64,000 bases of DNA from Phreatobacter aquaticus (GTDB lineage: Bacteria > Pseudomonadota > Alphaproteobacteria > Rhizobiales > Phreatobacteraceae): the NCBI RefSeq assembly GCF_005160265.1, contig NZ_CP039865.1, forward strand, positions 3,682,828-3,746,827, written 5' to 3'. Made by a program: the position numbers and the translations under genes. The notes beneath the pieces are model-generated. The model had not been told where the DNA came from, made no database searches, and saw only the letters and a program-made list of their open reading frames with translations. Positions 26,914-39,864 of the stretch are shown one piece after another (position 1 is the stretch's first letter; the number at the start of each line of letters is the position of its first letter).

Positions 26914-26927
26914 TGGCGGAGGAGGTG
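26914..26927. repeat. attL: copy of tRNA-Ser 3' end
   Basis: The 14 bases TGGCGGAGGAGGTG equal the complement of the tRNA-Ser 3' end, including CCA, at 39775-39788. Similarity continues weakly beyond (2 mismatches in the next 5 bases). This is the expected left attachment site, where the element carried a substitute for the tRNA tip. Confidence 0.8.
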
Positions 26928-27077
26928 GGACTAGTAGTGTAGATTTCGCCTGTCTCCCCCTGTTTCAGAGTGTTGCGATAAGCCATTGAAAAGACGCTTA
27001 TTTGGCTCGACCCGGCGCGAAATTGAGACCGGATAACGGCCGTTGTGTTTCAGCCTGTTCCGTGCAATTTCGAGCCC

Positions 27078-27099
27078 GTGGCCCTGTGGTGGCCCTGCG
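27078..27099 (+). repeat. 22-bp direct repeat, copy 1 (candidate integrase arm site)
   Basis: Identical to 39721-39742 in the same orientation. Each copy contains the octamer GTGGCCCT twice, 11 bases apart start to start, i.e. one helical turn. It lies about 150 bp inside attL, just before the integrase start, the place expected for arm-type integrase binding sites. Confidence 0.65.
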
Positions 27100-27115
27100 G
27101 CTTGGGAATGACACG

Positions 27116-28369
27116 ATGGAAAAAGGCATGGCGAAGCTCTCGGCGCGCAAGGTCGCGTCGGCCGGGAAGGGGGAGCATGCGGATGGCGGCGGGCTGGTCC
27201 TGCAGGTCACCGGGACGGGCCATAAGTCATGGCAATTCGTGTTCAAGAGGGGCGCGCGCGGTGAGGCGAAGCGGGTGCGCCTGTCCCTCGGCTTGCTCGC
27301 TGACATGACCTTGGCCGACGCGCGCGCCAAGGCTTCCGAGCTTCGCGCCGAGCTTGCAGCCGGCCGCGATCCCGGCTTGCTCTTGGCCCCGGCTCCTAGA
27401 GCAGCATCACCTACCACGTCACCGGAACAAGGCCCGGACACGTTCGGCCATTGGGCGGAACTCAAGATTGCCGCGATGGCTGATGAGCTTCGAAACCGGA
27501 AGCACCATGACCAATGGAAGATGACGCTTCGGACCTATGCGGGCGATCTGTTCCCCAAGCCGCTGGCTTCGATCACACGCGGCGACGTGGTCGAGGTCAT
27601 CAAGCCCCGCTGGTTGACCACGCCAGAGACGATCCAACGAACGCTTGGCCGTATCGCTGCGGTCTTCGACTATGCGGCTGCCCATGACGCCTATGACGGG
27701 GGCAATCCGGCGCGGTGGGATGCCGCAATGAAGCTGAGGCTCGGTCCACGGCTCAAGCTCTCCCGCGGACATATGGAGGCCATGCCATATGGGGACGTCC
27801 CGGCGTTCATGGTCAGGCTAGCGCAGGTCAAGGGGACCGGCGCGCAGGCGCTGGCCCTTGTGGTGCTCACCGGGGCGCGATCTGGCGAAGTCCGACTCGC
27901 GACGTGGGGTGAGATTGATCCCGAGGCGGCAGTGTGGAGCGTCCCGGCGGAGCGCATGAAGGCCAAGAAGCCGCACAAGGTTCCGTTGTCACCGGCAGCG
28001 CTGGCGATCCTCGGCGAGCCCGGCGAGCCCGATGACTATGTATTCCACGGCAGGAAGCACGGCCGGCCGCTGTCCGACATGACGCTGTCGAAGCTGCTGC
28101 ACTCGCTCGATGACGGCGGGTATGTGCCGCACGGCTTCCGCACTTCGTTCCGCATGTGGGCACAGGACAACGGCATCCCCTATGAGGTCGCCGAGCGCTG
28201 TCTTTCGCACGAGGTCGGAAACAAGGTGTCGCGCGCATATGCCCGGTCGGACATTCTAGAGGTGCGCAGGCCGATTATGGCCGATTGGGCGGCGCACGTG
28301 ATGTCTGCGTTTGGGCAGGAACCGGCGGGCATGGTGACGGACGAACACGGGTTCATCGTGGCGGCGTGA
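27116..28369 (+). CDS. int: Tyrosine-type site-specific integrase (DUF4102/P4-like)
   Basis: 417 residues from ATG; a second Met lies four codons on. The N-terminal DUF4102 arm-DNA-binding domain has MAKLSARKVASAG...DGGGLVLQVTGTGHKSWQFVFKRG, followed by a core-binding domain and the catalytic domain. The catalytic set is visible: Arg in LTGARSGEVRLATW (about residue 254), HGFR (His and Arg, about 338-341), a second His in CLSHEVGNKVSRAYAR and the nucleophile Tyr in SRAYAR (about 373). The gene adjoins the left att site and points into the element. Family members integrate at tRNA genes, as seen here. Confidence 0.93.
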   Translation: MEKGMAKLSARKVASAGKGEHADGGGLVLQVTGTGHKSWQFVFKRGARGEAKRVRLSLGLLADMTLADARAKASELRAELAAGRDPGLLLAPAPRAASPTTSPEQGPDTFGHWAELKIAAMADELRNRKHHDQWKMTLRTYAGDLFPKPLASITRGDVVEVIKPRWLTTPETIQRTLGRIAAVFDYAAAHDAYDGGNPARWDAAMKLRLGPRLKLSRGHMEAMPYGDVPAFMVRLAQVKGTGAQALALVVLTGARSGEVRLATWGEIDPEAAVWSVPAERMKAKKPHKVPLSPAALAILGEPGEPDDYVFHGRKHGRPLSDMTLSKLLHSLDDGGYVPHGFRTSFRMWAQDNGIPYEVAERCLSHEVGNKVSRAYARSDILEVRRPIMADWAAHVMSAFGQEPAGMVTDEHGFIVAA

Positions 28370-28610
28370 GGCCCGGCGCGTCATGGTGCTCGATTGGACG
28401 GCGTATGTTTTAAGATAGCAAACCCCTTAGCCGCATTGACCCATAATTGAAGCTAAGCGCGTCCCCCCTCGCAACTGCGAGCAAATCTGTCTGCCGTTGG
28501 CCAGCCAAATCCGCTTCCGAGCGCCGGGGGATATCTGGTCATTTTGGATGCGGGTCCCAATTCTGTCTGTTAAATTTCGACTCTGTCGATTGTGACTGGT
28601 CGGGGAACGC

Positions 28611-29372
28611 ATGCACATCCTGTTTACTGATGAGTCAGGAACTCCGCCGAAGCGCAACGCGGTCAAAGGCCCCCGCTACTTCACTATTGCCGGCGTTGCC
28701 ATTCCAATTGAACTATGGCGACAGGTCAACGATGCGTTCTGCGCACTGAAGGACGACCCCCGTTATCAAATCGTCGGCGAGGTCAAGTGGAAGCATTTTG
28801 GCGAGCGTAGACCGGGCGTCACCAACAACGTCACGCACCTATCTATGGATGAACGCATCTCGTTTCGGCGAGAACTATTTGATATCATTACGAAACGGGA
28901 ACGCATCAAGATAATCAGTTGCGTTTGCTCGGCCGCTGCTGCCTATGAAACGTCGTATATTAAAGACGAAAACGATCTATATGAATATACTTACAAGCCC
29001 GTTTCAGAGAGATTCCAATATTATCTACAGGACATCAGCACACCCGAGCATATCCAGTATGGTCTCATCGTCTGCGACCACAGAGATCGGCACCAAGACG
29101 ACCGACTTCGGCGGAGACATCAATCATTTGTCAATTCGACATATAAGAATTTCTCGAACTATAATAATCTTGTTGAAGGACTATTCTTGACCCAAAGCGA
29201 CAAGAGCGTCGGCGTACAGCTCGCCGATATGGTAGCCGGCGCGATTGGGCGCTATTTTAACAGCGACGACAAGCATTTCGCATTGCAGCTTAAGCCCTCA
29301 TTTCGTAGCGGCCCCGGCAAGAAGGTGCTCGGATATGGCATCGTGAAATTCCCAAAGGCCGGTTGGCGGTAA
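28611..29372 (+). CDS. DUF3800 domain protein
   Basis: 253 residues. The DUF3800 pattern is visible: an acidic N-terminal strand ILFTDESGTPP followed by RYFTIAGVAI, and a C-terminal VGVQLADMVAGAIGRYF with conserved Asp. The fold is thought to be RNase H-like with the acidic residues at the active site, and members often occur on mobile elements and among defence genes; no function is proven for this one. The gene is visibly richer in A/T than its neighbours, suggesting separate acquisition. The start follows GGGGAACGC. Possible roles are a cargo nuclease or an anti-phage/anti-helper gene. Confidence 0.8.
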   Translation: MHILFTDESGTPPKRNAVKGPRYFTIAGVAIPIELWRQVNDAFCALKDDPRYQIVGEVKWKHFGERRPGVTNNVTHLSMDERISFRRELFDIITKRERIKIISCVCSAAAAYETSYIKDENDLYEYTYKPVSERFQYYLQDISTPEHIQYGLIVCDHRDRHQDDRLRRRHQSFVNSTYKNFSNYNNLVEGLFLTQSDKSVGVQLADMVAGAIGRYFNSDDKHFALQLKPSFRSGPGKKVLGYGIVKFPKAGWR

Positions 29373-29591
29373 TCACACTTCTGGTGCGGCGGGACCTTCG
29401 TTGGCAGGCCGAACATGCGGCCGAATCCACACGTCCCGCGAGCCGCACCGCGAGCACCGAAGCCTATGACGGTAACGTAGGTCTTCTAGCTCGGCGAGGA
29501 TCGGCACCCGCATGGCTTGCCATGACAGCCAAGCCCGATGCCGGCAGCGCTGGCACGAGCACCACGCGCCGGGCACGCCTTGGTGTGCCAT
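29373..29591 (-). CDS. Small zinc-ribbon protein, unknown function
   Basis: 72 residues from MAHQGVPG; an upstream frame continues to 29675 with poor start signals. Two Cys pairs, WCSCQRCRHRAW and RCSRCGSRDVWIRPH, can hold one zinc, with a helix between them (ILAELEDLRYRH). Similar short proteins ending CSRCGSRDVxxRP are common in alphaproteobacteria and their phages, without known function. It is convergent with the DUF3800 gene, ending on the next base. Confidence 0.6.
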   Translation of the reverse strand: MAHQGVPGAWCSCQRCRHRAWLSWQAMRVPILAELEDLRYRHRLRCSRCGSRDVWIRPHVRPANEGPAAPEV

Positions 29592-29787
29592 CTGCAAAAC
29601 CGTGATCCGCCGCCGAGTCCCCATGCGGGGATGTTCGCATTTTGTTCTCACCGGAGGAAGCCGCTTCCAAGACAAGCGGGGATGCTTGCCGCCCTAACGG
29701 TCACCGGACCCTCGCGCATGCGCGCGCGCGAAACCACGTCAGCTCCCATCGTCGGCCGGGCTCAACTCGTGGCCGCAAGGAAGCAAC

Positions 29788-32691
29788 ATGGCCACGCTTA
29801 GCACCATCATCTCCGTATCAGCCCAAGACCAAGCGTCAGGCGTCCTCAATACCCTTGCCTCGAATATCCAGCGGCTCGCTGGCCAGACGGCAAGCGCTAC
29901 CGCGTCCATGGCGCGCAACGTCGCGACCGTCGCGGCAGTGCAGGCAAGCCAAGCTGCGCAGGCAGTCGCGGCCCCGATCCAGAACGCAGCCCGATCCATG
30001 CTCAATGGTGAGGTCACGTGGCAGCGCGCCGCGAACCGCTATGCGATGGCCACGGAAAACTTGCGCGAGGCCGAAGCCCGGTCATGGGGCGCAACCGATC
30101 GGCAGATTGAAGCCCGGCGCGAACAGATGGTCGGTGCGAACATGCGCCGTCACCGGGAAGCCTTGGCGCTGGCGCATCAGGTCGCGCGTGAGTCCGGCAT
30201 TTCGGCAGGCCAAGTCCTGAACGGCATGGCCGATCTGGCGTTCGCAGGTATGCGGGATCACGTCGTGCGAGCGCTCATGCCGGGCATCGCCAAGTATGCC
30301 TTGGCCGGTGACACGGACTTGCAGACGGCAGCGACTGCCACGCGGCAGAGCGTCATGGCCATCGGCGGCGAAGACGCCTTGAACAATGCGCAGCGCGCCA
30401 CGGAAATTGCGCGCCGGGCGAACACTCAGACGGCAGCCGCAGCCAACGCTACCGCCGCGAAGGTGCAGGACATCGAAATGGCGATGCGGTCGGGCGGTAA
30501 TGCCTACGTCGCGAACGCTCGCCGTGCTGCCATCGCCGATGCCGATCAGCGCGGGCTGTCCGGTGCTGAACGTCAGCGGATCATTGACGAGGCGGTCTTT
30601 AAGGCCCGGCGCGAGGCTGTCGCCGATGCAGGCCAGTTGATCGACCGTGGCTTTGAGCCGGGTCAGGCCGGCCGCGCGGTCGGTGCCATGACCAATCGTC
30701 TGTCAGCGATGACACCGCAGGGTCGCCGTGCGGCGCTCGATGCCGGCGTCAATCCGCTCGATTACATGACGCTCCCGCCGAACGTCGGCCAGAAGATCAT
30801 GGAGTCGGTCGTCCGCTCTTTGCCGCAGCTTCCCGAGGCCACGCGGCGCGCGGCCGAAGCGGTCTGGAATGACACGACCAAGTCCGTTCGTCAGCGGTAC
30901 GATGAGGCCAACGCCATCATTGCGCAGCGCGGCGGCGCTGGCGGGACGGCAATGACCGTGCGCGATAGCTTGAAGGCGCAGCGGCTCGCGCAAGAGGCAG
31001 TCGAGAATAACGCGGTCTCGGTCGATATCCGCCGGATGTACAACGAATTGAAGGCGCGTGGCATGAACGAGGCCACTATGCGCCGCGTGTTCGGTGCGCA
31101 CTATTCCCCCGAGATTGCCGAGCTTGATCCGGCGCGAAGCGCTGCAATCGCCAAGCAGATTGAGGGCGCGGAAAACAACCCGCTCTATCTGGAGTCGCTG
31201 TCGAACATCATGAAGACCGGGCTTCCCGCTGCGGTTCATGCCCTGTCAGCGGTCTTTGACGAGTTCCAAAAGAAGCTGTTCGAGACGTTCGGCCCCGAGG
31301 TCATCGCCGGCATCAGCAAGTTGCGCGAAATGCTGACTTCGGTGACGGATGCGATCAGCGCGAAGGACGGAAACGGGGATTTCATCTCTCCCGGCCTGCG
31401 GGAGGTCGTGAAGTGGGCATCGCTGGCAGCGGCCGGGCTTGCCGTGGTCGCTCCTATCATTGCCGGCATTGCCCTTGCGGCTTTGGGCTTGAAGGTGGTG
31501 TGGGGCGGCTTGATGGCCATCGCAGCCGGGGCGCTGGCGGTGGTCAAGTTCGGCGCTGCCATCGTCGGGGCGTTGATGTCGATCCCGGTTGCTATCGGCG
31601 CGGTCGTCGCGGCTGCGGCCGGCCTCGCGATCTTCAATGACCTTGGCGGGTCGCTCGCTCCGTTCATGGCCGCTATCGAGGCTGCCAAGGCCGCATGGGC
31701 GTCTCTGGTCGAGGCCGGCAAGGCGGCGCTGTCCGGTGACTGGTCAAAGGCCGGGGAACTGGCCATGAGCGCGCTGCGGTCGATTGGGTCGGGTCTGTGG
31801 TCCCTCGGCGAAAGCCTTGGCCGTGCGGCGCTCGGCGCTGTGCAGGCTGCAGGTCCGGCAATCTCGTCATGGGCGTCCGAGGTCTGGCAGTCCATGAAGC
31901 AGCTCGGCAAGAACATGGAGGCTGATTTCGACGCGGCGGTCATGCGCTTCGGCGAGTCCGTGCGGTCTGGCGTCGGTGCCACGGTCGAATGGCTGACAGG
32001 GGCTTGGGATAGCGCGGTGGCGTCGGTCTCTGCCAAGTTCACGGCTCTCGGCGATGCCATCAAGTCGGCGATCCAAGGGGCTCTCGATACCGTCACCGGG
32101 ACCTTTGACCGGTTCATGGCCCGCATTGACGGTTGGATTGCGAGCCTGCGCTCGCGCCTGCCTTCCTTCCTCGGTGGCACGCCTGCGGAGCCGGCAACGC
32201 CTGCGGTGCCGAGCGTGCCGCAGTTGCAGGGTCCGGCCGGTGCTGATTGGACGGAGCCTTTCAAGCGCATGGGCGGGGCTGCTTCCGAGGCCGAACGGCA
32301 GGTGACGCCTGTCAGCACGGCCATCCGTGATGTCGGCACCAACGCAGGTTCGGCTGCAGGCCAGCTTGACGCAGTGCGAAATGCACTTTCTGCCATCGCC
32401 CGCATGCCGGTCCCTGCCATGCCGTCTATGCCGGCAGCCCCGTCGCCTGCCGCTCCCGCGGTCCCGGCCGTCCAGCCCGTCAATGCCGGCCAGTCCGCAT
32501 CGGTGCAGGGCTTTAGGTCTTTCCAAGAGGCGGGCGTAGAGCCGCGCGCGCAGCGTGTCGAGATTGGTTCGGGCTCGATTGACGTGAGGGTCAGGGCGGA
32601 GCGTGGCAGCGAGGCGTTTACCTCCGCGCAGACGTCCGGCCGGATCGCAGCCAAGCTTGATGCCGGGGTCAACGATAGCGCTTGGATTTAA
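29788..32691 (+). CDS. Phage tail tape-measure protein
   Basis: 967 residues, by far the largest protein of the element. The N-terminus (STIISVSAQDQASGVLNTLASNIQRLAGQ) matches the usual beginning of tail tape-measure proteins. Long Ala-rich helical stretches follow, with a hydrophobic block of 2-3 membrane-like helices at about residues 538-617, which in tape-measure proteins helps open the inner membrane during DNA entry. An Ala/Pro-rich region comes near the C-terminus. The start follows AAGGAAGCAAC. No other tail gene (tube, terminator, chaperone, baseplate) is nearby. It could set tail length on helper-phage particles, be a prophage remnant, or be a large effector of similar build. It is intact and in frame throughout. 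Confidence 0.75.
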   Translation: MATLSTIISVSAQDQASGVLNTLASNIQRLAGQTASATASMARNVATVAAVQASQAAQAVAAPIQNAARSMLNGEVTWQRAANRYAMATENLREAEARSWGATDRQIEARREQMVGANMRRHREALALAHQVARESGISAGQVLNGMADLAFAGMRDHVVRALMPGIAKYALAGDTDLQTAATATRQSVMAIGGEDALNNAQRATEIARRANTQTAAAANATAAKVQDIEMAMRSGGNAYVANARRAAIADADQRGLSGAERQRIIDEAVFKARREAVADAGQLIDRGFEPGQAGRAVGAMTNRLSAMTPQGRRAALDAGVNPLDYMTLPPNVGQKIMESVVRSLPQLPEATRRAAEAVWNDTTKSVRQRYDEANAIIAQRGGAGGTAMTVRDSLKAQRLAQEAVENNAVSVDIRRMYNELKARGMNEATMRRVFGAHYSPEIAELDPARSAAIAKQIEGAENNPLYLESLSNIMKTGLPAAVHALSAVFDEFQKKLFETFGPEVIAGISKLREMLTSVTDAISAKDGNGDFISPGLREVVKWASLAAAGLAVVAPIIAGIALAALGLKVVWGGLMAIAAGALAVVKFGAAIVGALMSIPVAIGAVVAAAAGLAIFNDLGGSLAPFMAAIEAAKAAWASLVEAGKAALSGDWSKAGELAMSALRSIGSGLWSLGESLGRAALGAVQAAGPAISSWASEVWQSMKQLGKNMEADFDAAVMRFGESVRSGVGATVEWLTGAWDSAVASVSAKFTALGDAIKSAIQGALDTVTGTFDRFMARIDGWIASLRSRLPSFLGGTPAEPATPAVPSVPQLQGPAGADWTEPFKRMGGAASEAERQVTPVSTAIRDVGTNAGSAAGQLDAVRNALSAIARMPVPAMPSMPAAPSPAAPAVPAVQPVNAGQSASVQGFRSFQEAGVEPRAQRVEIGSGSIDVRVRAERGSEAFTSAQTSGRIAAKLDAGVNDSAWI

Positions 32692-32703
32692 GCGAACAGC
32701 GAG

Positions 32704-32729
32704 CGCTTAGGCAGGCCATGTCCTAAGCG
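32704..32729. terminator. Hairpin after the tape-measure gene
   Basis: Perfect 8-bp inverted repeat CGCTTAGG / CCTAAGCG with a 10-base loop, 12 bp after the tape-measure stop. No T-run follows, so a Rho-independent terminator is possible but not clear. Confidence 0.4.
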
Positions 32730-32733
32730 TTCT

Positions 32734-32771
32734 AGCGGTCGGTGACGGATTGAGCCCTGTCACCGGCCGCT
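32734..32771. repeat. Long inverted repeat upstream of terS
   Basis: 13-bp arms AGCGGTCGGTGAC and GTCACCGGCCGCT with one G-U type mismatch and a 12-base loop, immediately after the preceding hairpin and about 185 bp before the small terminase gene. It could be a second terminator hairpin or a structured leader. Packaging (pac/cos) sites often lie near terS, but nothing here proves one. Confidence 0.45.
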
Positions 32772-32955
32772 CAATTCCAAGCCCGGCGGGGCCATGTCCA
32801 TCCGGTGCTATGACCATAATACAATTCACGGGTCCCTCCTACCGCAAAAAGAGCCTGCGGAGCGCGCAGCCCCCTTCCTATGTGGAGGATAAGGCCATTT
32901 TTAGACTCCTAAATGCCGATTTTGGCCCCGAAAACCGTAATACAAAGTGGGAAAA

Positions 32956-33441
32956 ATGACCGATTTTCTGACGCGGAAGGCACTGTCGAAGGCCCTCGGA
33001 ATCTCCGAGCGGCGGATTTCTCAGTATGTCGAGGAAGGCCGATTGAGCCGGACGGCCGAAGGGCTCTATTCGCTCGCCGAGGCGCGGGAGCTTCGCGCAA
33101 CCGGCGTTGATCACGAGCGGAACAGGGGCGGGGGAGCGCGCACCGGGCGTCCGGTGACTGCCAACCCGGCAACCGGCGTTGCGACCAAGGCGAAGCTGCA
33201 CGAGCTGGCCTATCGGGCGAAGTCGAGGGAGCTGGCCTATAAGAACGAGGCCAGTGACCTAGTGGAAGCGGCTGCGGTGACGGAAACCTGCGAGGCCATG
33301 GCCGGCGTGATCACTGCCAAGCTGGACTCGTGGAATCCCGCGTTCCTAGAACACCTGAACGAGCGCGGGCTCGCGGTCTTCCGGGCTCTGATTGACGAGC
33401 TGCGTGACGAGACGGTCGAGGCTTTGCGCAAGGTCGCCTAG
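32956..33441 (+). CDS. terS: Nu1-like phage small terminase
   Basis: 161 residues. The N-terminal winged-helix/HTH (FLTRKALSKALGISERRISQYVEEGRLSR) resembles the DNA-binding domain of lambda Nu1. A flexible, Gly/Arg-rich linker follows. The C-terminal helices (TKAKLHELAYRAKSRELAYKNEASDLVEAAAV...VITAKLDSWNPAFLEHL) have the order and spacing of Nu1-type oligomerisation helices with the typical L-V-E-A-A-V turn. A small terminase recognises the DNA to be packaged and hands it to the large subunit; no large subunit is present, so it would have to use one from a helper phage. A GTG three codons upstream is possible. A plain HTH regulator is the alternative. Confidence 0.6.
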   Translation: MTDFLTRKALSKALGISERRISQYVEEGRLSRTAEGLYSLAEARELRATGVDHERNRGGGARTGRPVTANPATGVATKAKLHELAYRAKSRELAYKNEASDLVEAAAVTETCEAMAGVITAKLDSWNPAFLEHLNERGLAVFRALIDELRDETVEALRKVA

Positions 33442-33726
33442 AACCGGCTTCGCGCTCGCCTGTGCAAGCTCGCTGGCAGCGCAGCGCCAACGCTCGCCGG
33501 TATCGCTCCGCAAGTCATAGACGCTGATCGTCAGGCCGGGCTCGGCTTGCGAGTGCCAATCCCATCGCTCGGCGACGGTCCAGCGATGCCCCCGGCCCGT
33601 CAACTCGTCACCGACTTCGAGCTTGGGGAAGGGCAGGCGCTTGGCCGGCCGGATTTCGTTGCGGTCGAAAGCCTCCCGCGGCTGCGGATCGGTGGCGAAC
33701 AGGGGCGGCAGGGTGTTGCGTGTCAT
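33346..33726 (-). CDS. Hypothetical protein overlapping the terS 3' end
   Basis: 126 residues from MTRNTLPPL (ATG three codons upstream also possible). The middle is beta-rich with a compact domain (LEVGDELTGRGHRWTVAERWDWHSQAEPGLTISVYDLRSDTGERWRCAASEL); the tail is helical. The last 96 bp lie opposite the 3' end of terS, a tail-to-tail overlap. Amino-acid composition is protein-like, but no family was recognised, and the overlap lowers confidence. Confidence 0.45.
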   Translation of the reverse strand: MTRNTLPPLFATDPQPREAFDRNEIRPAKRLPFPKLEVGDELTGRGHRWTVAERWDWHSQAEPGLTISVYDLRSDTGERWRCAASELAQASAKPVLGDLAQSLDRLVTQLVNQSPEDREPALVQVF

Positions 33727-33776
33727 CGGCCCCATGTGCGGTGCGCCGGCCGATCCGCAAGCCGCGCATAGCAGAT

Positions 33777-33809
33777 ATTCCTAGTTGTTACGTCCACAGT
33801 CCTAGGAAT
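33777..33809. repeat. Inverted repeat ATTCCTAG/CTAGGAAT
   Basis: Perfect 8-bp arms at 33777-33784 and 33802-33809, with 17 bases between, about 50 bp upstream of the minus-strand unknown gene ending at 33346. The place and form suit an operator. A related CTAGG-CAT-CCTAG palindrome lies at 34433-34445. Confidence 0.4.
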
Positions 33810-33927
33810 GTGTGCCAATCGGCCGGCACGCGCGGCGGGTCGAGCCCGATGACTTGAATAGGCCCGCAATCGGCCGGAAACGGGGGTAGGAGCGGCGCGG
33901 GCGGGGTCTCGGCTAGGTCTTTGGCTG

Positions 33928-34326
33928 TCAGTCGTCGGCAGGGACACGCTGCGGCGAAACGGCTCCGGTCAGAAATGCGCGAAATTCCTTCCCGTCGTCA
34001 TAGCGGTCGATCCCCTGCATTTCGTCCAGAGACGAGCGCTTCGGGGTGTGCTCCCAACGAATGTCGCACCAATTGCCGCGCTGCGTGCCAGCGGCGCTAT
34101 GGGATGCCCACAGGCCATCGCGCCCGCGCCGGTAGACGACATCAGGCTTCTCGCCTCGGAACGTAGCGACTTCGATCACGTCAGGATCGACCCGGCGGAA
34201 ATAGTTGATGGCGCCGGACATGTCAGTGCTGCCGAACTCGTCCAGCACCACACGGCCAGCGCGCGCGCGGAAGTCGTAGGTCAGCGAAACAACGTTGCAC
34301 ATAAGTTCCATGCTGTAAGTGGTCAT
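33928..34326 (-). CDS. Hypothetical protein
   Basis: 132 residues. The start at MTTYSMELMCNVVSLTYDF is supported by a GGGGGA ribosome-binding site six bases upstream. Content is soluble and mixed alpha/beta (GRVVLDEFGSTDMSGAINYFRRVDPDVIEVATFRGEKPDVVYRRGRDGLW), with an acidic end. No family or motif was recognised. It is the first minus-strand gene left of the AT-rich repeat region. Confidence 0.65.
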   Translation of the reverse strand: MTTYSMELMCNVVSLTYDFRARAGRVVLDEFGSTDMSGAINYFRRVDPDVIEVATFRGEKPDVVYRRGRDGLWASHSAAGTQRGNWCDIRWEHTPKRSSLDEMQGIDRYDDGKEFRAFLTGAVSPQRVPADD

Positions 34327-34789
34327 TGATATCCCCCGATAGATGATAATCGAAAGTCGCCTGCAACTGAGGCAGAAGGGCGGCATGCCCACACTTGGAG
34401 TCCGGTGACTGTGGGAAGGCGCGGCTCCGATACTAGGCATCCTAGACGGTCGTCTCGGCGCGGGGCAGGAAGTTTAGCCCCCTATATATAGGACACCCCC
34501 CTTAAACAGCATGATCCTTGAAATAATGTTGCGCAGAACACCAACTTAGAGAGGGGGGTATAGAACTAACCGATATAACCGAAGATACTATATAACCCTT
34601 TATAAAAACTAGGTTTTCAAGGGGTCTGTTTGTTCGCGGATTGGGTCGGATGAACCCGAAGGAAGCCCTTCCGACAAATCCCCCTTCTGTCGGGGTTACG
34701 TCCCCCCCTTTTCAGGGGTTACTTCGGGCACAAAAAAGGCCCCGCCAGAACGAGCCGGCAGGGCCATCAACACGTCATAGGATTGGGTC
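34327..34789. other. AT-rich, repeat-bearing non-coding region (candidate replication origin)
   Basis: 463 bp without a gene between the unknown minus-strand gene and the helicase-like gene. The stretch 34480-34620 is strikingly A/T-rich for this genome. Short repeats are visible: ATATAACC at 34573-34580 and 34590-34597 (17 bp apart), GGGGTTAC at 34692-34699 and 34715-34722, an inverted pair CCGACA/TGTCGG at 34671-34676 and 34688-34693, and CTAGGcatCCTAG at 34433-34445. Such a mix next to a replication-protein gene suits an origin or a control region. The right end is the terminator of the helicase gene. Confidence 0.45.
34732..34765 (-). terminator. Rho-independent terminator of the DUF3987 gene
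   Basis: Read on the minus strand: GGCCCTGCC, a 10-base loop, GGCGGGGCC, then six T. The 9-bp stem has a single G-U pair. It lies 25 bp after the stop of the DUF3987 gene. Confidence 0.85.
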
Positions 34790-36985
34790 TCAGGCGGTCT
34801 TATTCAGCTTATAGACCTTGCCCGGCCGGCCACCCTGTTCGCCCGGCTTAACGGTCTCCTCGGCAACCTCTCCGCCGTCGATCAGAAGCCGCACCGCGTC
34901 ATCAAGGTCGCGTGCCTTCATGGTGCCGTCCAAGGCGCGAACGAGCTTGGTCCGTGTCATGGTCCCGCCGGCCTTCCTGATGATCCGGCGCACCTCCTTA
35001 AGGTTGGCCTGATGCTCGCTGTCGGCGATGAAGTCGACTCCGTTGCTGGCCATTGCCGTGGTCGAGAGGCCGACAATCCACGAGCCCCATTCGAGGTCAG
35101 CGACGGTGATGACAGGCTGCAGAGGATTGATGCCGATGGCCCTGATCTGCGCAACGCGAAGCGACATTTCAGCGGCCCGGCGGAAGAACAGGCCAATAGC
35201 CGGGTTGGCTGCCCTCGTGGCAAAGCCGTCGCGCATCCTCGTCCAGTAGTCTTCGGCTCCGTCGCCGAACGGGATGTCGATAACGTGTCCAAGGCTCTCC
35301 CGGTCATTGCGATCAGGATACATCTGGTCCCCATAGATCGCCTTAAGCAGGGTCACGATGCGATCTGGCACCCCCTCGTCACAGGGCTTGTGCGACGGGT
35401 CATGCTTGCCCGGTTCGGCTGTCAGAACGAGCATGCGATTCAGCGTGCCGTCTTCGACATTCGAGCCGCGCAACGAATGCCAGAACTGCTTGGGCGTCGA
35501 AGCGCCGATGATCGAAAAGTGAGGGGCGATAATGGTGACGCTGGCGTCCAGTGCCTTGGCGGTGGTTTCCAGCGATCCGAAGTTCTTGCCCCATTGCGTG
35601 CGCATGTAACGGGCGATCTTGCCCATCCAAGGCATGCGCTGATTGTTCATGTCGCTCCAAACGCTGCCGAACTCGTCAACGGCGGAGAAGCCGAGCGGCT
35701 GCTTGGTGACGGTCTTCATGAACGCTTCGCCCGATGCGAACTCGCCGGGACCGATATGCTGTCCCAAGCCGGCCTTGCGCATGATGACCTTGGCCGTGTC
35801 CATAGGGTGTTCCTTGCCGGTGCCGGACTCCGCGATATTGGCGACGTACAGGACGCAAGAGCACTTGGTCGGCCCGCGATAGCGACGGCCGGCAGCGGTG
35901 CCAATGGCGACGAGGGCAGCCCCAAGGGCGTGCAAGGGCATCGGCTGCAAGGCGGTATCGCAGATATAGCGAGTGATGGCCCCCACGAGCCCCGGAACGT
36001 CATAGAGCGCGGCGTAAGGGTCGGCCGCGGGAGGCGCGGCGGGCGCGGGTGCGGGGACGGGTGTGGCGGCGGCAGCTTCCTTGTCCTTGTAATCGAGCCA
36101 TGCTTGTGCGGCTGCTTCGATCCGTTCGGCTTCGGCTGCCTCGGCTTCGGCCTCTGCCTTGATGGCCTCGGCGATGCCGGCCTTGCGATCCTCGTCAAAC
36201 TGCCGTTCTGCGGCGACGTCTTCGGCTGTCACGTCATAGTCGAGGCGGGCGGCGCGGATAGCGCACTGCCTCTTGTCATTGGACAGGTTCGTATTGGCTT
36301 CGGCGGTGGCGATGGCTTCGGCAAGCTGGCGCTGGCAGCGTTCGGCCTCGGCGCGATCTGCGGCGGTCACGCCACGCTCTGCGGCCATCTGGCGGCGGTA
36401 GTCCCGCTCAACCTCGGCGGCTGCCTTCAACTCGGCTTCGATGACGGCTGGGTCTCGGTGATCGGCGCAGAATGCCTGCGCAGCGCGGCGGGCGGCAAGC
36501 TCGATGCGGTCGGCGGTCGTGAGGTCGAAGGCGAAAAGGGCTGCCCTCATGTCGTCATAGGACAAGCTGGCGTCGCCCTCGATAGCGGCCCGCTCGGCGG
36601 CGATCTTGGCGCGCTCGATTGCGGTGGCAGCTTCGGCTTCAAGCCGCGCGGAATCTGCGAACGGCGCGAGGTCGGATTCGGTGAGCAAGGGGAGGGCATT
36701 AGCGGGCGGCAGGTCGCCTGCGGGCAGTTCCACGTCACCGGCGATGACGGACACGACATGCTCGCCGAAATGCCATCCGCGCTCGCTGCAGCCGAACGTC
36801 AGGGCAAAAGGATCGGCGGAGCGGAACCAGCGCACCTCGCGGCAGTCATTGGCGTCCGGCGGAATGGTTGCGGGGCTCTCGGGGAGGATGAAAAGGTGAG
36901 CCGGTGACGTCACCACGAGGGCGACATAAAAGTCATCGGGGACGTGGGTCCGCACGGCGGCGGCAGGCAGGCATTCGGTATTCAC
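34790..36985 (-). CDS. DUF3987-type P-loop helicase-like replication protein
   Basis: 731 residues from a GTG start. Residues 1-120 form an unrecognised N-terminal domain. About 120-330 is a highly charged, Ala/Glu/Arg-rich helical stretch, probably coiled coil. From about 330 a DUF3987 domain follows with a Walker-A-like AESGTGK (about 386-392), a Walker-B-like FSAVDEFGSVWSD and an ATPase sensor region HFSIIGASTPKQFWHSL. The C-terminus (ADLEWGSWIVGL...GGTMTRTKLVRALDGTMKARDLDDAVRLLIDGGEV) is a winged helix. DUF3987 proteins act as replication helicases of phages and mobile elements. No primase motif was found in the N-terminal part, so host or helper priming is likely. Confidence 0.8.
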   Translation of the reverse strand: MNTECLPAAAVRTHVPDDFYVALVVTSPAHLFILPESPATIPPDANDCREVRWFRSADPFALTFGCSERGWHFGEHVVSVIAGDVELPAGDLPPANALPLLTESDLAPFADSARLEAEAATAIERAKIAAERAAIEGDASLSYDDMRAALFAFDLTTADRIELAARRAAQAFCADHRDPAVIEAELKAAAEVERDYRRQMAAERGVTAADRAEAERCQRQLAEAIATAEANTNLSNDKRQCAIRAARLDYDVTAEDVAAERQFDEDRKAGIAEAIKAEAEAEAAEAERIEAAAQAWLDYKDKEAAAATPVPAPAPAAPPAADPYAALYDVPGLVGAITRYICDTALQPMPLHALGAALVAIGTAAGRRYRGPTKCSCVLYVANIAESGTGKEHPMDTAKVIMRKAGLGQHIGPGEFASGEAFMKTVTKQPLGFSAVDEFGSVWSDMNNQRMPWMGKIARYMRTQWGKNFGSLETTAKALDASVTIIAPHFSIIGASTPKQFWHSLRGSNVEDGTLNRMLVLTAEPGKHDPSHKPCDEGVPDRIVTLLKAIYGDQMYPDRNDRESLGHVIDIPFGDGAEDYWTRMRDGFATRAANPAIGLFFRRAAEMSLRVAQIRAIGINPLQPVITVADLEWGSWIVGLSTTAMASNGVDFIADSEHQANLKEVRRIIRKAGGTMTRTKLVRALDGTMKARDLDDAVRLLIDGGEVAEETVKPGEQGGRPGKVYKLNKTA

Positions 36986-37376
36986 GGCATCGTCTTTCTG
37001 GCTGAAAATGTTGGCCAGAGAGGCTTGAAAACCGGTGATCGCTTACCAAATCAGGTCTGCGTCTTCCGCGCTTTCTGAGCCCTTCTTTGCACCAGCATCA
37101 GCCCGGTCCCATTTGCCGTGGGGCCGGGCATTTCTTTGCGCGCCGTGCGGGTCATCCGCCGGCATCGATCCGCAAGTGGGTGCCTGCGGAAATTTTCACA
37201 AGAACCCCGTTGACATTTATCTTGCAGTGTGATCCTGCCGCGTGTTCCCGGCAAATGTAACTGATCGTAACATGTAATTCCTTCCCCGGTTGATGATCTT
37301 GCCGATCCTTTCGATTTTTTCTTTCGAGCATATCTCATGGTCACCGGCAGCAAAGCCGAGGCAAAGAGAGACGGAT
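36986..37376. promoter_or_regulatory. Divergent control region of the replication gene and small-gene operon
   Basis: 391 bp between the minus-strand helicase-like gene and the plus-strand small-gene operon. It contains a consensus-like -35 hexamer TTGACA at 37210-37215 facing the operon, without an obvious -10. Two GTAAC pentamers lie exactly 10 bp apart (37257-37261 and 37267-37271), followed by ATGTAA. The one-turn spacing suggests a bound regulator. No RNA gene is visible. Confidence 0.4.
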
Positions 37377-37580
37377 ATGACACTTCCCGAAAATTTTCTG
37401 ACAGGTCAGGCGGCTGTGATCGCCAATGAAGCCGAAGCCGAATTGGCCAAGCTCAGCAACGAAATCATCAAGGCACTGAGTCTGCAGGTCTACGATGCTG
37501 CGGCACGCGATGAGTTCCACCGAGTTCATGTTATCGCTCACAAGCTGGCGCGCATCAGCGCGATCATGTTGGAGGACTGA
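37377..37580 (+). CDS. Small hypothetical protein, first gene of a five-gene operon
   Basis: 67 residues, soluble and helical (TLPENFLTGQAAVIANEAEAELAKLSNEIIKAL...VIAHKLARISAIMLED). The start follows AAAGAGAGACGGAT. It has the look of a small phage-type regulatory or accessory protein, but no family is recognised. The next gene begins one base after the stop. Confidence 0.6.
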   Translation: MTLPENFLTGQAAVIANEAEAELAKLSNEIIKALSLQVYDAAARDEFHRVHVIAHKLARISAIMLED

Positions 37581-37581
37581 C

Positions 37582-37815
37582 ATGGCCATCAATATCGCAG
37601 GCCGGCAGATGGTCGGCCTTCCCGAAATCGTTGACGAGACCGGCCTCACGCGGACGGTCCTTGCCGGCGCTGCGGAGCGCGCTGGCGTAACGCTGCGCAA
37701 GCTCGGCGGTCGGTATTGGTTCGATGCCGAAGCGCTCGCCGAAACGCTCTCAATCGAGCATGCCGACGCGGCCAAGATCATCAGCAGCATCGCAGCCAAG
37801 GAGTCGGCCCGATGA
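37582..37815 (+). CDS. Small HTH DNA-binding protein (excisionase/MerR-like)
   Basis: 77 residues, preceded by GGAGG. The segment VGLPEIVDETGLTRTVLAGAAERAGVTLRKLGGRYWFDAEALAETL reads as a winged helix-turn-helix of the excisionase/MerR type with a basic-aromatic wing (GGRYWF). It could control the element's promoters or assist excision. It overlaps the next gene by ATGA. Confidence 0.55.
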   Translation: MAINIAGRQMVGLPEIVDETGLTRTVLAGAAERAGVTLRKLGGRYWFDAEALAETLSIEHADAAKIISSIAAKESAR

Positions 37816-38258
37816 GCATCGTTTGCGCAATCGCCGAGGGCATGGACGAGGAACGGCTGCACGAGGTCACGGACGTCTGCAGGGCTTACAACGCTGCTTG
37901 TGCTCGGCTCGGAATCCAGTCGATCAAGCTCGCTGATCGTATCGAGGAACTGCACAACGTCGGCGTTCACGTCCGCAATGCCAGTCAGCGCGATCCCGAT
38001 CTGGATGGACGCAAGGACTTCGTGTCGATCAACCGCGTCGCCGACGCGCTCGATTGGAGCCCCGAACTGATGGCCGAAGTCGGTCGCAGCCTTCGGGACG
38101 AAGATGACGACGTGTTCGGCTACCTGCAGCCGCTCAATCGCGATGACCGGCGCGCTTACCGTGACGAACAGCAGGAACTCGCGCTCAAGGGGCATGACCG
38201 GAAGTCCCGCACGATTCAGCTCATTGGCGCGCGCGCCTACGAATCCATCAACTTCTGA
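37812..38258 (+). CDS. Hypothetical protein
   Basis: 148 residues, acidic and helical, with a DWSPELMAEVGRSLRDEDDDVFGYL segment and a basic C-terminal part. Start codon overlaps the stop of the HTH gene, showing translational coupling. No recognised domain. Confidence 0.6.
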   Translation: MSIVCAIAEGMDEERLHEVTDVCRAYNAACARLGIQSIKLADRIEELHNVGVHVRNASQRDPDLDGRKDFVSINRVADALDWSPELMAEVGRSLRDEDDDVFGYLQPLNRDDRRAYRDEQQELALKGHDRKSRTIQLIGARAYESINF

Positions 38259-38268
38259 GGAGCCAACC

Positions 38269-38448
38269 ATGGCCAAGATTCCCTATGACCGGGTCAGCGA
38301 CTCGATCCGTACCTCTCACAACGGTGCACCGCTCGGTGCACCTCGTTCGACCGAAGGCCAGCGCGCGGTGCCGTCGACTCCGCGTGAACAGCCCCGCAAT
38401 GAGCTTGGGTCAGGCCCCAAGCCGAGCTTTGCGCCGAGGCGCGCATGA
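38269..38448 (+). CDS. Small hypothetical protein
   Basis: 59 residues, rich in Pro, Ser, Arg and Gly, probably disordered (AKIPYDRVSDSIRTSHNG at the N-terminus). Preceded by GAGGAG, and its stop overlaps the next start by ATGA. No family recognised; the good ribosome-binding site and coupling are the main support. Confidence 0.5.
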   Translation: MAKIPYDRVSDSIRTSHNGAPLGAPRSTEGQRAVPSTPREQPRNELGSGPKPSFAPRRA

Positions 38449-38888
38449 GCGTCGCGGCATCGAATACCGTCTCGTACATCGTCGCCCAACGCCTGTGGCG
38501 CGAAGGGAAGGGCACGAAGCCCGATCCCGCTGCATTTGGCATGGATCAGGTGCCACAGGGTGCCAAGGCAGCCACGGTGACGGCCAAGGCGGCTGCCCCG
38601 GCACCATCGAAGTCACCGGCCCCGGTCGCGGCTCCCGCGGTCCCTCTGGCGGCTTCCGTGGCACTGCAGGCGGCAGCACTGGCACCGGCACGGCCGGCGG
38701 TCGATCCGCAGGCGGCACGGCTCGCTGAAATCAAGGCGAATATCCCGGCACACCTCCGCCGCAAGTCACCGGCCCGGCAGCTTGCCAAGGTCGAGACGGC
38801 CAACCCGGCGCATGCCGGCGGCATGTCAGCGGATCGTCTGGCGGAAATCCGAGCGGCGACTCGCTCGATTGGGCGCGGGCGTCGGTGA
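38445..38888 (+). CDS. Hypothetical Ala/Pro-rich protein
   Basis: 147 residues. A short ordered N-terminus (NTVSYIVAQRLWREGKGTKPDP) is followed by an Ala/Pro-rich linker of about 60 residues and two similar basic segments, each beginning RLAEI (RLAEIKANIPAHLRRK and RLAEIRAATRSIGRGRR). This suggests a scaffold- or DNA-binding-type tail. Last gene of the operon; a strong hairpin follows at 38992. Confidence 0.5.
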   Translation: MSVAASNTVSYIVAQRLWREGKGTKPDPAAFGMDQVPQGAKAATVTAKAAAPAPSKSPAPVAAPAVPLAASVALQAAALAPARPAVDPQAARLAEIKANIPAHLRRKSPARQLAKVETANPAHAGGMSADRLAEIRAATRSIGRGRR

Positions 38889-38991
38889 CGCAGCGCTGAT
38901 GCGAGCCGAGCCCGGATGAACGGCCGGCCGCATCGAAATTCCCTCGTGCTGTCAGCTTAATCCTCTGGAACAGTACGAGGTCTATGCAAGG

Positions 38992-39016
38992 CCCCGGACG
39001 CGGCGAACGTCCGGGG
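38992..39016. terminator. Strong hairpin between convergent genes
   Basis: Perfect 9-bp stem CCCCGGACG / CGTCCGGGG with a 7-base loop, between the plus-strand operon and the minus-strand small gene. Only short T-containing tracts flank it, but the location suits a bidirectional terminator. Confidence 0.6.
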
Positions 39017-39026
39017 TCTTCGCATA

Positions 39027-39254
39027 TCAGGCTGCCTGCTTGTCACTGCCAATCCAGAGGCAGGCCGCGTCGAGGCCCTGAGAAGCTGCCACGTCGCGCA
39101 AGGCGTCCATGGCAAGCACGATGGCTGCAGCGTTCGGCAGTGACAGGCGCGTGAACCCGACAACCTCGTCAAGCAGGCGCTCGCCGAGTTCGCGGCTGTC
39201 GATTGCCGGGATGTCGCGGGCAGGGGCGGTGTGGTGGATTTCGATGATCGTCAT
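39027..39254 (-). CDS. Small hypothetical protein
   Basis: 75 residues (TIIEIHHTAPARDIPAIDSREL then a helical LLDEVVGFTRLSLPNAAAIVLAMDAL). Start preceded by AAGGAACGAG. Unknown function. It lies 105 bp downstream of the HTH gene and may share its promoter. Confidence 0.55.
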   Translation of the reverse strand: MTIIEIHHTAPARDIPAIDSRELGERLLDEVVGFTRLSLPNAAAIVLAMDALRDVAASQGLDAACLWIGSDKQAA

Positions 39255-39359
39255 AGGTCTCGTTCCTTGGTTTGGTGACTGACAGGCTGACCATCGCCTC
39301 CCGGCTTAATGGCGTCAACCCATTGAAATGGCAGATGAAATTTTGACAGATTGGCAGGA

Positions 39360-39542
39360 TCAGTGCAGCGATGCGAAGCGGCTGACGCTGGCGTCGGTGA
39401 TGCGCACACCGGCCTTGCCGATCTTGATCTTATCGAGCCGGCCATCCTTGCAGAGACGCCAGAGCTGAGTGCGGCTAATTGAGAGGCGGCGGCAGGCTTC
39501 GGAGACGGTGTGAAGCGTGCGGCTCGGATTGTCGGGCGTCAT
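39360..39542 (-). CDS. AlpA/excisionase-like HTH protein
   Basis: 60 residues, start preceded by AAAGGGACC. The core LHTVSEACRRLSISRTQLWRLCKDGRLDKIKIGKAGVRITDASVSRF is the MerR-like winged helix of AlpA/Xis proteins (helix-turn-helix, basic wing, C-terminal helix). In Gram-negative phage satellites AlpA-type proteins switch on excision and gene expression. A frame open to 39815 lies upstream, but it crosses the 22-bp repeat and part of the tRNA and is not credible as coding. Confidence 0.75.
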   Translation of the reverse strand: MTPDNPSRTLHTVSEACRRLSISRTQLWRLCKDGRLDKIKIGKAGVRITDASVSRFASLH

Positions 39543-39720
39543 GGGCAGGTCCCTTTGCGTTGGTGACCTGATGGAAGCTGACGAGTGCGCGTTCGGTTCG
39601 TCAATCGCTGGCACCGCAGAAAGCCGGCAAATCACGTCACCGGATGTCGCTCGCCGTCCAGCCGTGGCAGAATCGTGACACCGGGCTGTCGCACGTCGTT
39701 TCGGGCTGTAGCGCGCAACG

Positions 39721-39742
39721 GTGGCCCTGTGGTGGCCCTGCG
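39721..39742 (+). repeat. 22-bp direct repeat, copy 2 (candidate integrase arm site)
   Basis: Identical to 27078-27099, about 33 bp inside the right att site. The two GTGGCCCT octamers have the same 11-bp period. About 20 bases left of it resemble those left of copy 1 (GTTTC..G.CTGT..CG.GCAA in both), so the similarity reaches beyond the 22 bp. Confidence 0.65.
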
Positions 39743-39774
39743 AAACCGAAACACGTAATGATTTCAATAGATTG

Positions 39775-39788
39775 TGGCGGAGGAGGTG
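39775..39788. repeat. attR: tRNA-Ser 3' end
   Basis: The 14-bp sequence shared with attL (26914-26927). It is the encoded 3' tip (acceptor strand and CCA) of tRNA-Ser, which remains whole here. Confidence 0.8.
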
Positions 39789-39864
39789 AGATTCGAACTC
39801 ACGGTGGGCTTGCACCCACGGCGGTTTTCAAGACCGCTGCCTTAAACCACTCGGCCACCCCTCC
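39775..39864 (-). tRNA. tRNA-Ser(UGA)
   Basis: 90 nt including encoded CCA. Acceptor stem GGAGGGG pairs with CTCCTCC (one G-U), discriminator G; D-loop GCCGAGTGGTTTAAGGC, anticodon loop CTTGAAA (anticodon TGA), a long variable arm as required for serine, and TTCGAAT in the T-loop. It is the integration site of the element. Confidence 0.95.

What the first reader, a model, noticed from the sequence alone, without database searches (positions are those of the whole stretch)
26914..39788. PICI-like phage satellite in an alphaproteobacterium
A 12.9-kb element sits at the 3' end of tRNA-Ser with both att copies visible. It combines integrase, an AlpA-type HTH protein, a replication helicase-like gene, an AT-rich candidate origin and a Nu1-like small terminase, and lacks large terminase, portal, capsid and lysis genes. 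Known satellites (PICIs) are defined by this set: excision/replication genes plus terS that redirects a helper's packaging machinery. The gene order differs from E. coli PICIs (int and alpA at opposite ends, replication gene central). A decayed prophage would explain some of this, but the genes are intact and compact.
Basis: partly seen in the sequence, partly recalled or inferred. Interest (0 to 1): 0.85.

Follow-up and report, generated by a model that had tools for sequence, protein, structure and literature searches.

The report
Phage satellite carrying a tail ruler
This 12.9-kb island looks like a parasite of bacterial viruses that carries a packaging signal resembling theirs, its own packaging-start protein and, unusually, its own copy of the protein that sets the length of a virus tail, which suggests it rebuilds its helper's tail as well as stealing its shell.

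Summary
The element is real: 26914-39788, at the 3' end of tRNA-Ser(TGA), with a 14-bp exact att pair and a 22-bp exact repeat inside both ends. It encodes a tyrosine integrase, AlpA-type regulator, primase-helicase and Nu1-type TerS; no TerL, portal, capsid or lysis gene was recognised. Two features had been missed: the largest gene (29788-32691, 967 aa) matches tail tape measure proteins (TMP), and a block between it and terS (32830-32902) resembles the cos site of GpA-terminase phages; in Rhodobacter phage RcKemmy the like block spans the genome ends, reported as 11-base 5' overhangs. A same-genus genome holds a second island at tRNA-Glu with a 41%-identical intact TMP, a shared 132-aa gene, a cos-like block and an AlpA-type gene, but another replicase. 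A strict cos pattern hits 3 of 397 genomes of the order, all in this genus. Best reading: a cos-packaged phage satellite whose TMP is built into hijacked helper tails, as shown in 2026 for Vibrio PLEs. PICI membership is partial; induction, helper and capsid redirection are untested, the TMP role is inferred, and no empty site could be shown. New variant of a known kind.

The parts
26914..26927 (.). attL core, 14 bp TGGCGGAGGAGGTG
   Evidence: exact copy of 39775-39788
27078..27099 (+). left 22-nt exact repeat, candidate integrase arm site (role inferred)
   Evidence: D4
27116..28369 (+). tyrosine integrase (ORF open from 27002)
   Evidence: phrog_1 8.8e-45; PF13356, PF22022, PF00589
28611..29372 (+). 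DUF3800 protein, low G+C, cargo slot; candidate defence gene
   Evidence: PF12686 1.4e-14; PADLOC PDC-M04A 1.4e-10
29788..32691 (+). tail tape measure protein, 967 aa
   Evidence: phrog_991 8.9e-10, phrog_1272 2.9e-9, phrog_167 3e-8; PF10145 5.1e-7 with 30.2 bits, below its cut-off of 33.2, but 34.7 bits and over the cut-off in the six-frame search
32830..32902 (+). cos-like packaging block; predicted 11-nt 5' overhang GAGCGCGCAGC at 32860-32870 (inferred)
   Evidence: compared with RcKemmy termini
32947..33441 (+). small terminase, Nu1 type (start 32947 GTG or 32956 ATG)
   Evidence: phrog_57 3.9e-19
33346..33735 (-). ORF of 129 aa, unknown; convergent with and overlapping terS, may not be a gene
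   Evidence: no family hit
33928..34326 (-). 132-aa protein conserved in the second island, unknown function
   Evidence: 43% identity; found in 2 of 12 genomes of the genus
34655..34728 (.). short direct and inverted repeats in an AT-richer gap, weak candidate origin
   Evidence: G+C dip
34790..36985 (-). primase-helicase
   Evidence: phrog_3022 7.7e-59
37290..37580 (+). small ORF, unknown
37495..37815 (+). small ORF, weak recombination-directionality-factor match
   Evidence: phrog_7506 0.024
37716..38258 (+). small ORF, unknown
   Evidence: no hit
38445..38888 (+). small ORF, unknown
   Evidence: no significant hit
39027..39254 (-). small ORF, unknown
39360..39542 (-). AlpA-type excisionase/regulator (ORF open from 39815)
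   Evidence: HTH_17 2e-7, phrog_66 2.1e-7
39721..39742 (+). right 22-nt exact repeat
   Evidence: D4
39775..39788 (.). attR core inside the 3' end of tRNA-Ser
39775..39864 (-). tRNA-Ser(TGA), integration target

Best explanation
A cos-packaged phage satellite integrated at tRNA-Ser. Proposed cycle: AlpA and the integrase excise the island; its own primase-helicase replicates it; its TerS brings a helper's GpA-type large terminase to the island's cos site, where an 11-base 5' overhang is cut; the helper supplies TerL, portal, capsid and most tail parts; the island's own tape measure protein replaces the helper's while the tail is built, giving a chimeric tail. Shown by sequence: att pair, gene content, TMP homology and intactness, a second island with the same TMP/cos/AlpA/132-aa set, and a cos-like block matching phage termini. 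Inferred: excision, replication, use of a GpA-type helper, TMP incorporation, and its benefit (tail length, DNA injection range, or evading a block aimed at the helper's tail).
For: TMP matches several PHROGs tape measure families in both islands. The two TMPs align end to end at 41% identity with no stop inside; dN/dS about 0.49 overall and 0.16 over residues 595-700, with near-saturated dS. Cos pattern GGGTCCYYCN{40,65}GGYCATTTTT: 3 of 397 genomes, 4 places, all in this genus; the reversed-pattern control has one match in the listing, G054; 0 in 100 shuffles of the window. Similar blocks lie upstream of terS in the resident G000 phage-like element, before a methyltransferase-like gene in the G002 prophage, before the small gene that precedes terL in Acetobacter phage phiAP1, and across the genome ends of RcKemmy, for which PMC8601537 gives 11-base 5' overhangs. 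A three-anchor matrix trained on five phage sites ranks 32830 first in the window and 4559 first in the second island. Precedent: PLE satellites incorporate their own TMP (PMC12987554 section 8).
Against: No complete helper prophage was identified in the genome, though only two families (PF05876, PF10145) were searched for; the one GpA-type phage-like element found shows no capsid gene among the ORFs scanned. No tail assembly chaperone or baseplate gene was recognised in the island, unlike PLE11. The second island has no TerS match and its left end is off the contig, so its integrase was not seen. No empty tRNA-Ser site could be shown. The TMP is only weakly related to phage TMPs, so the matching helper tail is unknown. 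The cos anchors were chosen after seeing the satellite sites. Two positions in 12.5 Mb of simulated sequence score as high as the window site.
Confidence: 0.65

Rival explanations
1. Decayed prophage: a deletion derivative of a GpA-type temperate phage that happens to keep int, primase, cos, terS and the tape measure gene.
For: All parts are of phage descent; the same genome carries another phage-like element with TerS, TerL, portal, neck proteins and TMP but no capsid gene among the ORFs scanned, so reduced prophages seem to occur here; no helper seen.
Against: The order TMP-cos-terS does not follow from simple deletions of cos-terS-terL-...-TMP (inference). Two islands at different tRNAs with different replicases share TMP, the 132-aa gene, a cos-like block and an AlpA-type gene, with TMP open over its full length at 41% identity. 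No match to TerL, portal or capsid families among the island ORFs scanned.
Confidence: 0.15
2. Satellite in which the TMP is a poison: it competes with the helper's tape measure or chaperone and blocks helper tails, rather than being used in satellite particles.
For: A satellite protein aimed at the helper's tape measure is known (Rta of PLE11, PMC12987554 passages); DUF3800 nearby matches a candidate defence model.
Against: A full-length TMP conserved from N to C terminus in two islands is more than a decoy needs (inference); in PLE11 the satellite TMP is found in the particles.
Confidence: 0.12
3. Satellite with an ordinary PICI-like life cycle; the TMP is passenger cargo picked up from a phage and has no role in transfer.
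For: The neighbouring slot carries different genes (DUF3800 here, a protein matching phrog_5783 at L004:155-1003 in the second island).
Against: TMP is kept intact in both islands while replicase and neighbour differ.
Confidence: 0.08

Closest known systems
PLE satellites of Vibrio cholerae (PLE1, PLE4, PLE11; PMC12987554)
   Same: Satellite carrying its own tape measure protein that differs strongly from phage TMPs (PLE11 TMP 20% identical to that of ICP1, section 8).
   Different: Tyrosine integrase at a tRNA, AlpA, Nu1-type TerS and cos-like block here; no recognised TAC or BhuB here; another host class; PLEs depend on lytic phage ICP1. PLE proteins were not compared with the island's.
Phage-inducible chromosomal islands (PICIs)
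   Same: Integrase, AlpA, primase, packaging function, small size, no capsid, portal or TerL.
   Different: Carries a TMP; own TerS together with a cos-like site, whereas an introduction passage of PMC10690885 gives TerS to pac-type SaPIs, phage terminase to cos SaPIs and Rpp to Proteobacterial PICIs; gene order differs; no capsid-redirecting gene recognised.
Capsid-forming PICIs (cf-PICIs)
   Same: Some are said to carry putative tmp genes (legend of Extended Data Fig. 10, PMC12987554).
   Different: cf-PICIs encode capsid, portal and both terminase subunits (PMC10690885 passage); no capsid, portal or TerL recognised here.
GpA-terminase cos phages of Alphaproteobacteria (RcKemmy, RcKvothe, phiAP1, phage-like regions of the same genus)
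   Same: cos-like block; Nu1-type TerS family.
   Different: Carry TerL and head genes; satellite TerS only 22-23% identical to four TerS of the genus, three of which are named by position and reading only.
AH14b satellite of Pseudomonas (PMC4936722)
   Same: 16.8-kb element thought to use a resident phage's capsids and carrying one tail-related gene, tail assembly protein I (passages; abstract start).
   Different: No tape measure gene is given for AH14b in the passages seen; VIRFAM found no head-neck-tail protein in it.

Membership tests
PICI | Integrase and specific attachment site | tested here: met
PICI | AlpA-type (or Stl) regulator | tested here: met
   AlpA-type HTH; no master repressor identified
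PICI | Own replication primase | tested here: met
   phrog_3022
PICI | TerS or packaging site that redirects helper packaging | tested here: inconclusive
   TerS family and cos-like block present by homology; redirection not tested
PICI | No TerL, portal, capsid or lysis genes | tested here: met
   16 island ORFs against PHROGs
PICI | No phage tail structural gene | tested here: not met
   TMP at 29788-32691; whether this criterion is strict is a matter of definition
PICI | Capsid size redirection gene | tested here: inconclusive
   none recognised by PHROGs or Pfam; several ORFs have no match
PICI | Induction and mobilisation by a helper phage | not testable with these tools
   needs experiment
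cf-PICI | Encodes capsid, portal and TerL | tested here: not met
PLE | tmp together with tac | tested here: inconclusive
   tmp present; no chaperone match among the ORFs scanned
PLE | Sequence relation to Vibrio PLEs, induction by ICP1 | not tested
   PLE proteins were not fetched or compared
Decayed prophage | Remnants of head and tail operons or broken genes | tested here: inconclusive
   no head-gene match among ORFs scanned, but a tail gene (TMP) is there; stretches between ORFs were not searched for fragments
Decayed prophage | A full-length parent phage with the same TMP | tested here: not met
   TMP searches: 150 relatives, 397 of the order, 385 of the class, INPHARED, IMG/VR patterns; only weak partial phage matches

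The most novel reading that the evidence does not exclude
Alphaproteobacteria hold an independently evolved family of tail-substituting satellites that combine a cos site of the GpA-phage type, an optional own TerS and an own tape measure protein without capsid genes or a tail chaperone; the TMP lets satellite particles inject into cells that the helper's own tails cannot enter, for example helper lysogens protected by superinfection exclusion.
Probability: 0.3. Interest if true: 0.8.

Novelty: new variant of a known kind. Interest (0 to 1): 0.62.

Why it matters
By its authors' account, satellite-encoded tape measure proteins were first reported in 2026 for Vibrio PLEs (PMC12987554 section 8), with putative ones in other satellites mentioned in a figure. 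A further satellite type in another bacterial class, with a TMP kept in two diverged islands, supports tail reprogramming as a general strategy and gives a compact system (one TMP, no recognised chaperone) to test it. The cos-like block predicts the exact packaged ends, so one sequencing run of protected DNA could confirm or refute the satellite claim.

Tried and rejected
Relatives in IMG/VR by primase, TerS or the 132-aa gene: none. TMP in IMG/VR: one partial 29% hit, L007, an ordinary phage contig by reading its ORFs. TMP in INPHARED: none at 1e-5. Weak TMP profile hits in G222 and G182 lie among tail genes of ordinary prophages by reading the ORFs (no family search was run). The weak hits in G034, G143 and G324 were not followed (the G034 contig was fetched and only scanned for tRNAs).

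Empty site: the joined flanks matched the tRNA in 10 of 11 congeners without flanking similarity (G009 had no tRNA match); the SRAP end matched elsewhere in G002, G007 (twice) and G009. Synteny is not conserved, so this is inconclusive. Left att of the second island: no clear second copy in G005; two other places match with 2 and 3 mismatches and were not examined.

Primase relatives occur in 28 of 397 genomes at 1e-10. Of six neighbourhoods fetched I listed ORFs of two (L065, L067) and saw reverse-transcriptase-like genes in both, an integrase in one, and no TMP, by reading. The other four were only scanned for tRNAs.

IMG/VR cos pattern: 22 contigs; 4 examined. Two (L096, L101) have the block before methyltransferase-like genes as in G009, L101 with a TerS-like ORF further on; two (L098, L104) have unrelated contexts and are probably chance (by reading). 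18 not examined. The G005 prophage L031 has a partial block 50 bp before its terS: GGGTCCTCCC, TATGCGGG and CTAG, but no run of T. Two further GpA phages: KLER1-1 shows no block in its first 200 bases; CRP-406 shows a faint one before its terS (AGGTTCTTC and CTAGCG only).

Structure of the 132-aa protein: mean pLDDT 53, not interpretable. PDB sequence searches for TMP and primase: none. A scaffold-like role for L004:9100-9456 or window 38445-38888: no support. blastn of the cos region against INPHARED: none.
Full report
What is there. The island spans 26914-39788 of the window. tRNA-Ser(TGA) is at 39775-39864 on the minus strand. Its 3'-terminal 14 bases are repeated exactly at 26914-26927, and a 22-nt exact repeat lies just inside each end. 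PHROGs and Pfam give a tyrosine integrase, an AlpA-type HTH protein, a primase-helicase and a Nu1-type TerS. Of the 16 island ORFs scanned with PHROGs none matched TerL, portal, capsid or lysis families.

What was missed. The largest gene, 29788-32691, matches several tail tape measure families (phrog_991 8.9e-10, phrog_1272 2.9e-9, phrog_167 3e-8) and PF10145 (below the cut-off, above it). It has no tblastn match at 1e-5 in INPHARED, and in its own genome it matches only itself, so it is not a close copy of the resident phage-like element's TMP.

A second island. In G005, a same-genus genome whose contig C14 is JAIUOO010000008.1, isolate PHREA1 (from this label alone I infer the genus Phreatobacter), an island abuts tRNA-Glu. 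It has a 985-aa TMP, 41% identical end to end and matching PHROGs tape measure families at 8.5e-10, an excisionase-type HTH gene next to the tRNA, and a helicase/primase of other families. It also carries the 132-aa minus-strand gene, 43% identical. It has no TerS match, and its left end is cut by the contig. Synonymous sites are near saturation; dN/dS is about 0.49 for TMP, 0.16 for residues 595-700 and 0.54 for the 132-aa gene. Full-length TMP of this kind was seen only in these two genomes: 2 of 150 relatives, with a weak partial hit in 1 other; 2 of 397 genomes of the order, with weak partial hits in 4 others; in the class sample of 385 only the window's own genome. The samples overlap, G005 was not seen in the class listing, and only 2 to 5 candidates per genome are scored in these three searches.

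The cos-like block. Aligning the sequence after TMP in the two islands showed a conserved block, GGGTCC..C ... GCGG.GC.CGC.GCCCCC ... GG[CT]CATTTTT, at 32830-32902 and L004:4559-4631, both 73 bases. In the window it ends 44 bp before terS. A similar block lies about 90 to 160 bp before terS in the resident G000 phage-like element, before methyltransferase-like genes in the G002 prophage and in G009, and just before the small gene, annotated hypothetical, that precedes terL in Acetobacter phage phiAP1. The strict pattern hits 3 of 397 genomes, 4 places, all in this genus; the reversed control has one match in the listing, in G054; none in 100 shuffles of the window. Rhodobacter phages RcKemmy and RcKvothe carry a TerL about 30% identical to that of the G000 element. 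The RcKemmy record ends ...AGGTTCTTCC...GCTATGCG and starts GGGGGCGGAAGCGCG...TCCCTAG...TTTTTTTT, and PMC8601537 (passages) gives it 11-base 5' overhangs. So the block spans published virion ends in that group. A three-anchor matrix trained on five phage sites puts the window site first on both strands (28.6 against 20.3 for the next independent site) and the G005 island site first (27.7 against 17.3); 2 positions in 12.5 Mb of simulated sequence score as high. The anchors were chosen after the satellite sites had been seen, so this is supportive and not independent. Counter-examples and partial blocks are told under Tried and rejected.

How it probably works. Excision by integrase and AlpA, replication by its own primase, packaging by a helper's GpA-type TerL at the island's cos with the island's TerS (the G005 island would need the helper's), a helper head, and a tail built around the island's TMP. 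Packaging by a GpA-type helper is supported by homology; the rest is inference. The precedent is PMC12987554 (section 8 read in full): PLE11 particles contain the satellite's TMP and BhuB in place of the phage's, and tmp deletions cut transduction by 96% (PLE1), 99% (PLE4) and about 99.9% (PLE11). The legend of its Extended Data Fig. 10 says putative tmp genes occur in PLE-like elements and in a sampling of cf-PICIs; I saw the legend only, so alphaproteobacterial elements there cannot be excluded.

Helper. The only PF05876 TerL in the genome sits in a phage-like element that starts near tRNA-Asn at about 3.484 Mb and runs to about 3.508 Mb (right end not determined). PHROGs gave an integrase, TerS, TerL, portal, a head-protease-like fragment, a tail protein, an 840-aa TMP and a tail-completion protein among 10 ORFs scanned; a Pfam head-tail attachment match is below its cut-off. 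No capsid gene was seen, partly by reading the ORF lists. It is probably not a working helper alone. Prophages with other TerL families were not searched for. G002, G005 and G009 have GpA-type TerL genes in phage-like surroundings.

Rivals. A decayed prophage is disfavoured by gene order, intactness and the second island, but the reduced element above suggests that such decay happens in this genome. TMP as poison or passenger cannot be excluded without experiment.

Literature. Searches (6 papers; 22, 20 listed; 5; 38, 12 listed; 15; 3) showed, by title and start of abstract, no report of a tape-measure-bearing satellite in Alphaproteobacteria and none on Phreatobacter prophages; the library holds open-licence papers only. 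PMC4936722, PMC10690885 and PMC8601537 were seen as passages; PMC12987554 as passages plus section 8.

Verdict. New variant of a known kind: by its parts it works like a PICI for integration, replication and packaging, and perhaps like a PLE for tails; not filed as a PICI, cf-PICI or PLE.

Noticed in passing
G000:C1 about 3483856-3508000 (L029, L030), outside the window: Phage-like element near tRNA-Asn with integrase, TerS, TerL, portal, tail-completion protein, TMP and a primase-like gene (the last by reading), but no capsid or tail-tube gene recognised; a reduced prophage or another satellite type.
   Followed up: partly
L116:4440-4508; L033:4373-4445; L121 about 1503-1576; record ends of MW677517 and OP009275: A shared cos-like block in GpA-terminase phages of Alphaproteobacteria, in some separated from terS by methyltransferase-like or ParB-like genes; could be used to find cos satellites.
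   Followed up: partly
L119:1-15 (OP009275, RcKvothe): The record starts with a few bases not at the start of RcKemmy and has GGGGGCGGA at both ends, perhaps an artefact of how the ends were set.
   Followed up: no
window 28611-29372: DUF3800 gene in a stretch of low G+C (about 48-53%) between int and TMP; matches PADLOC candidate PDC-M04A at 1.4e-10, so possibly a defence gene.
   Followed up: partly
L065:8890-13048 and L067:6784-10303: Relatives of the island's primase lie near reverse-transcriptase-like genes in two other genera of the order (by reading, no family search).
   Followed up: no
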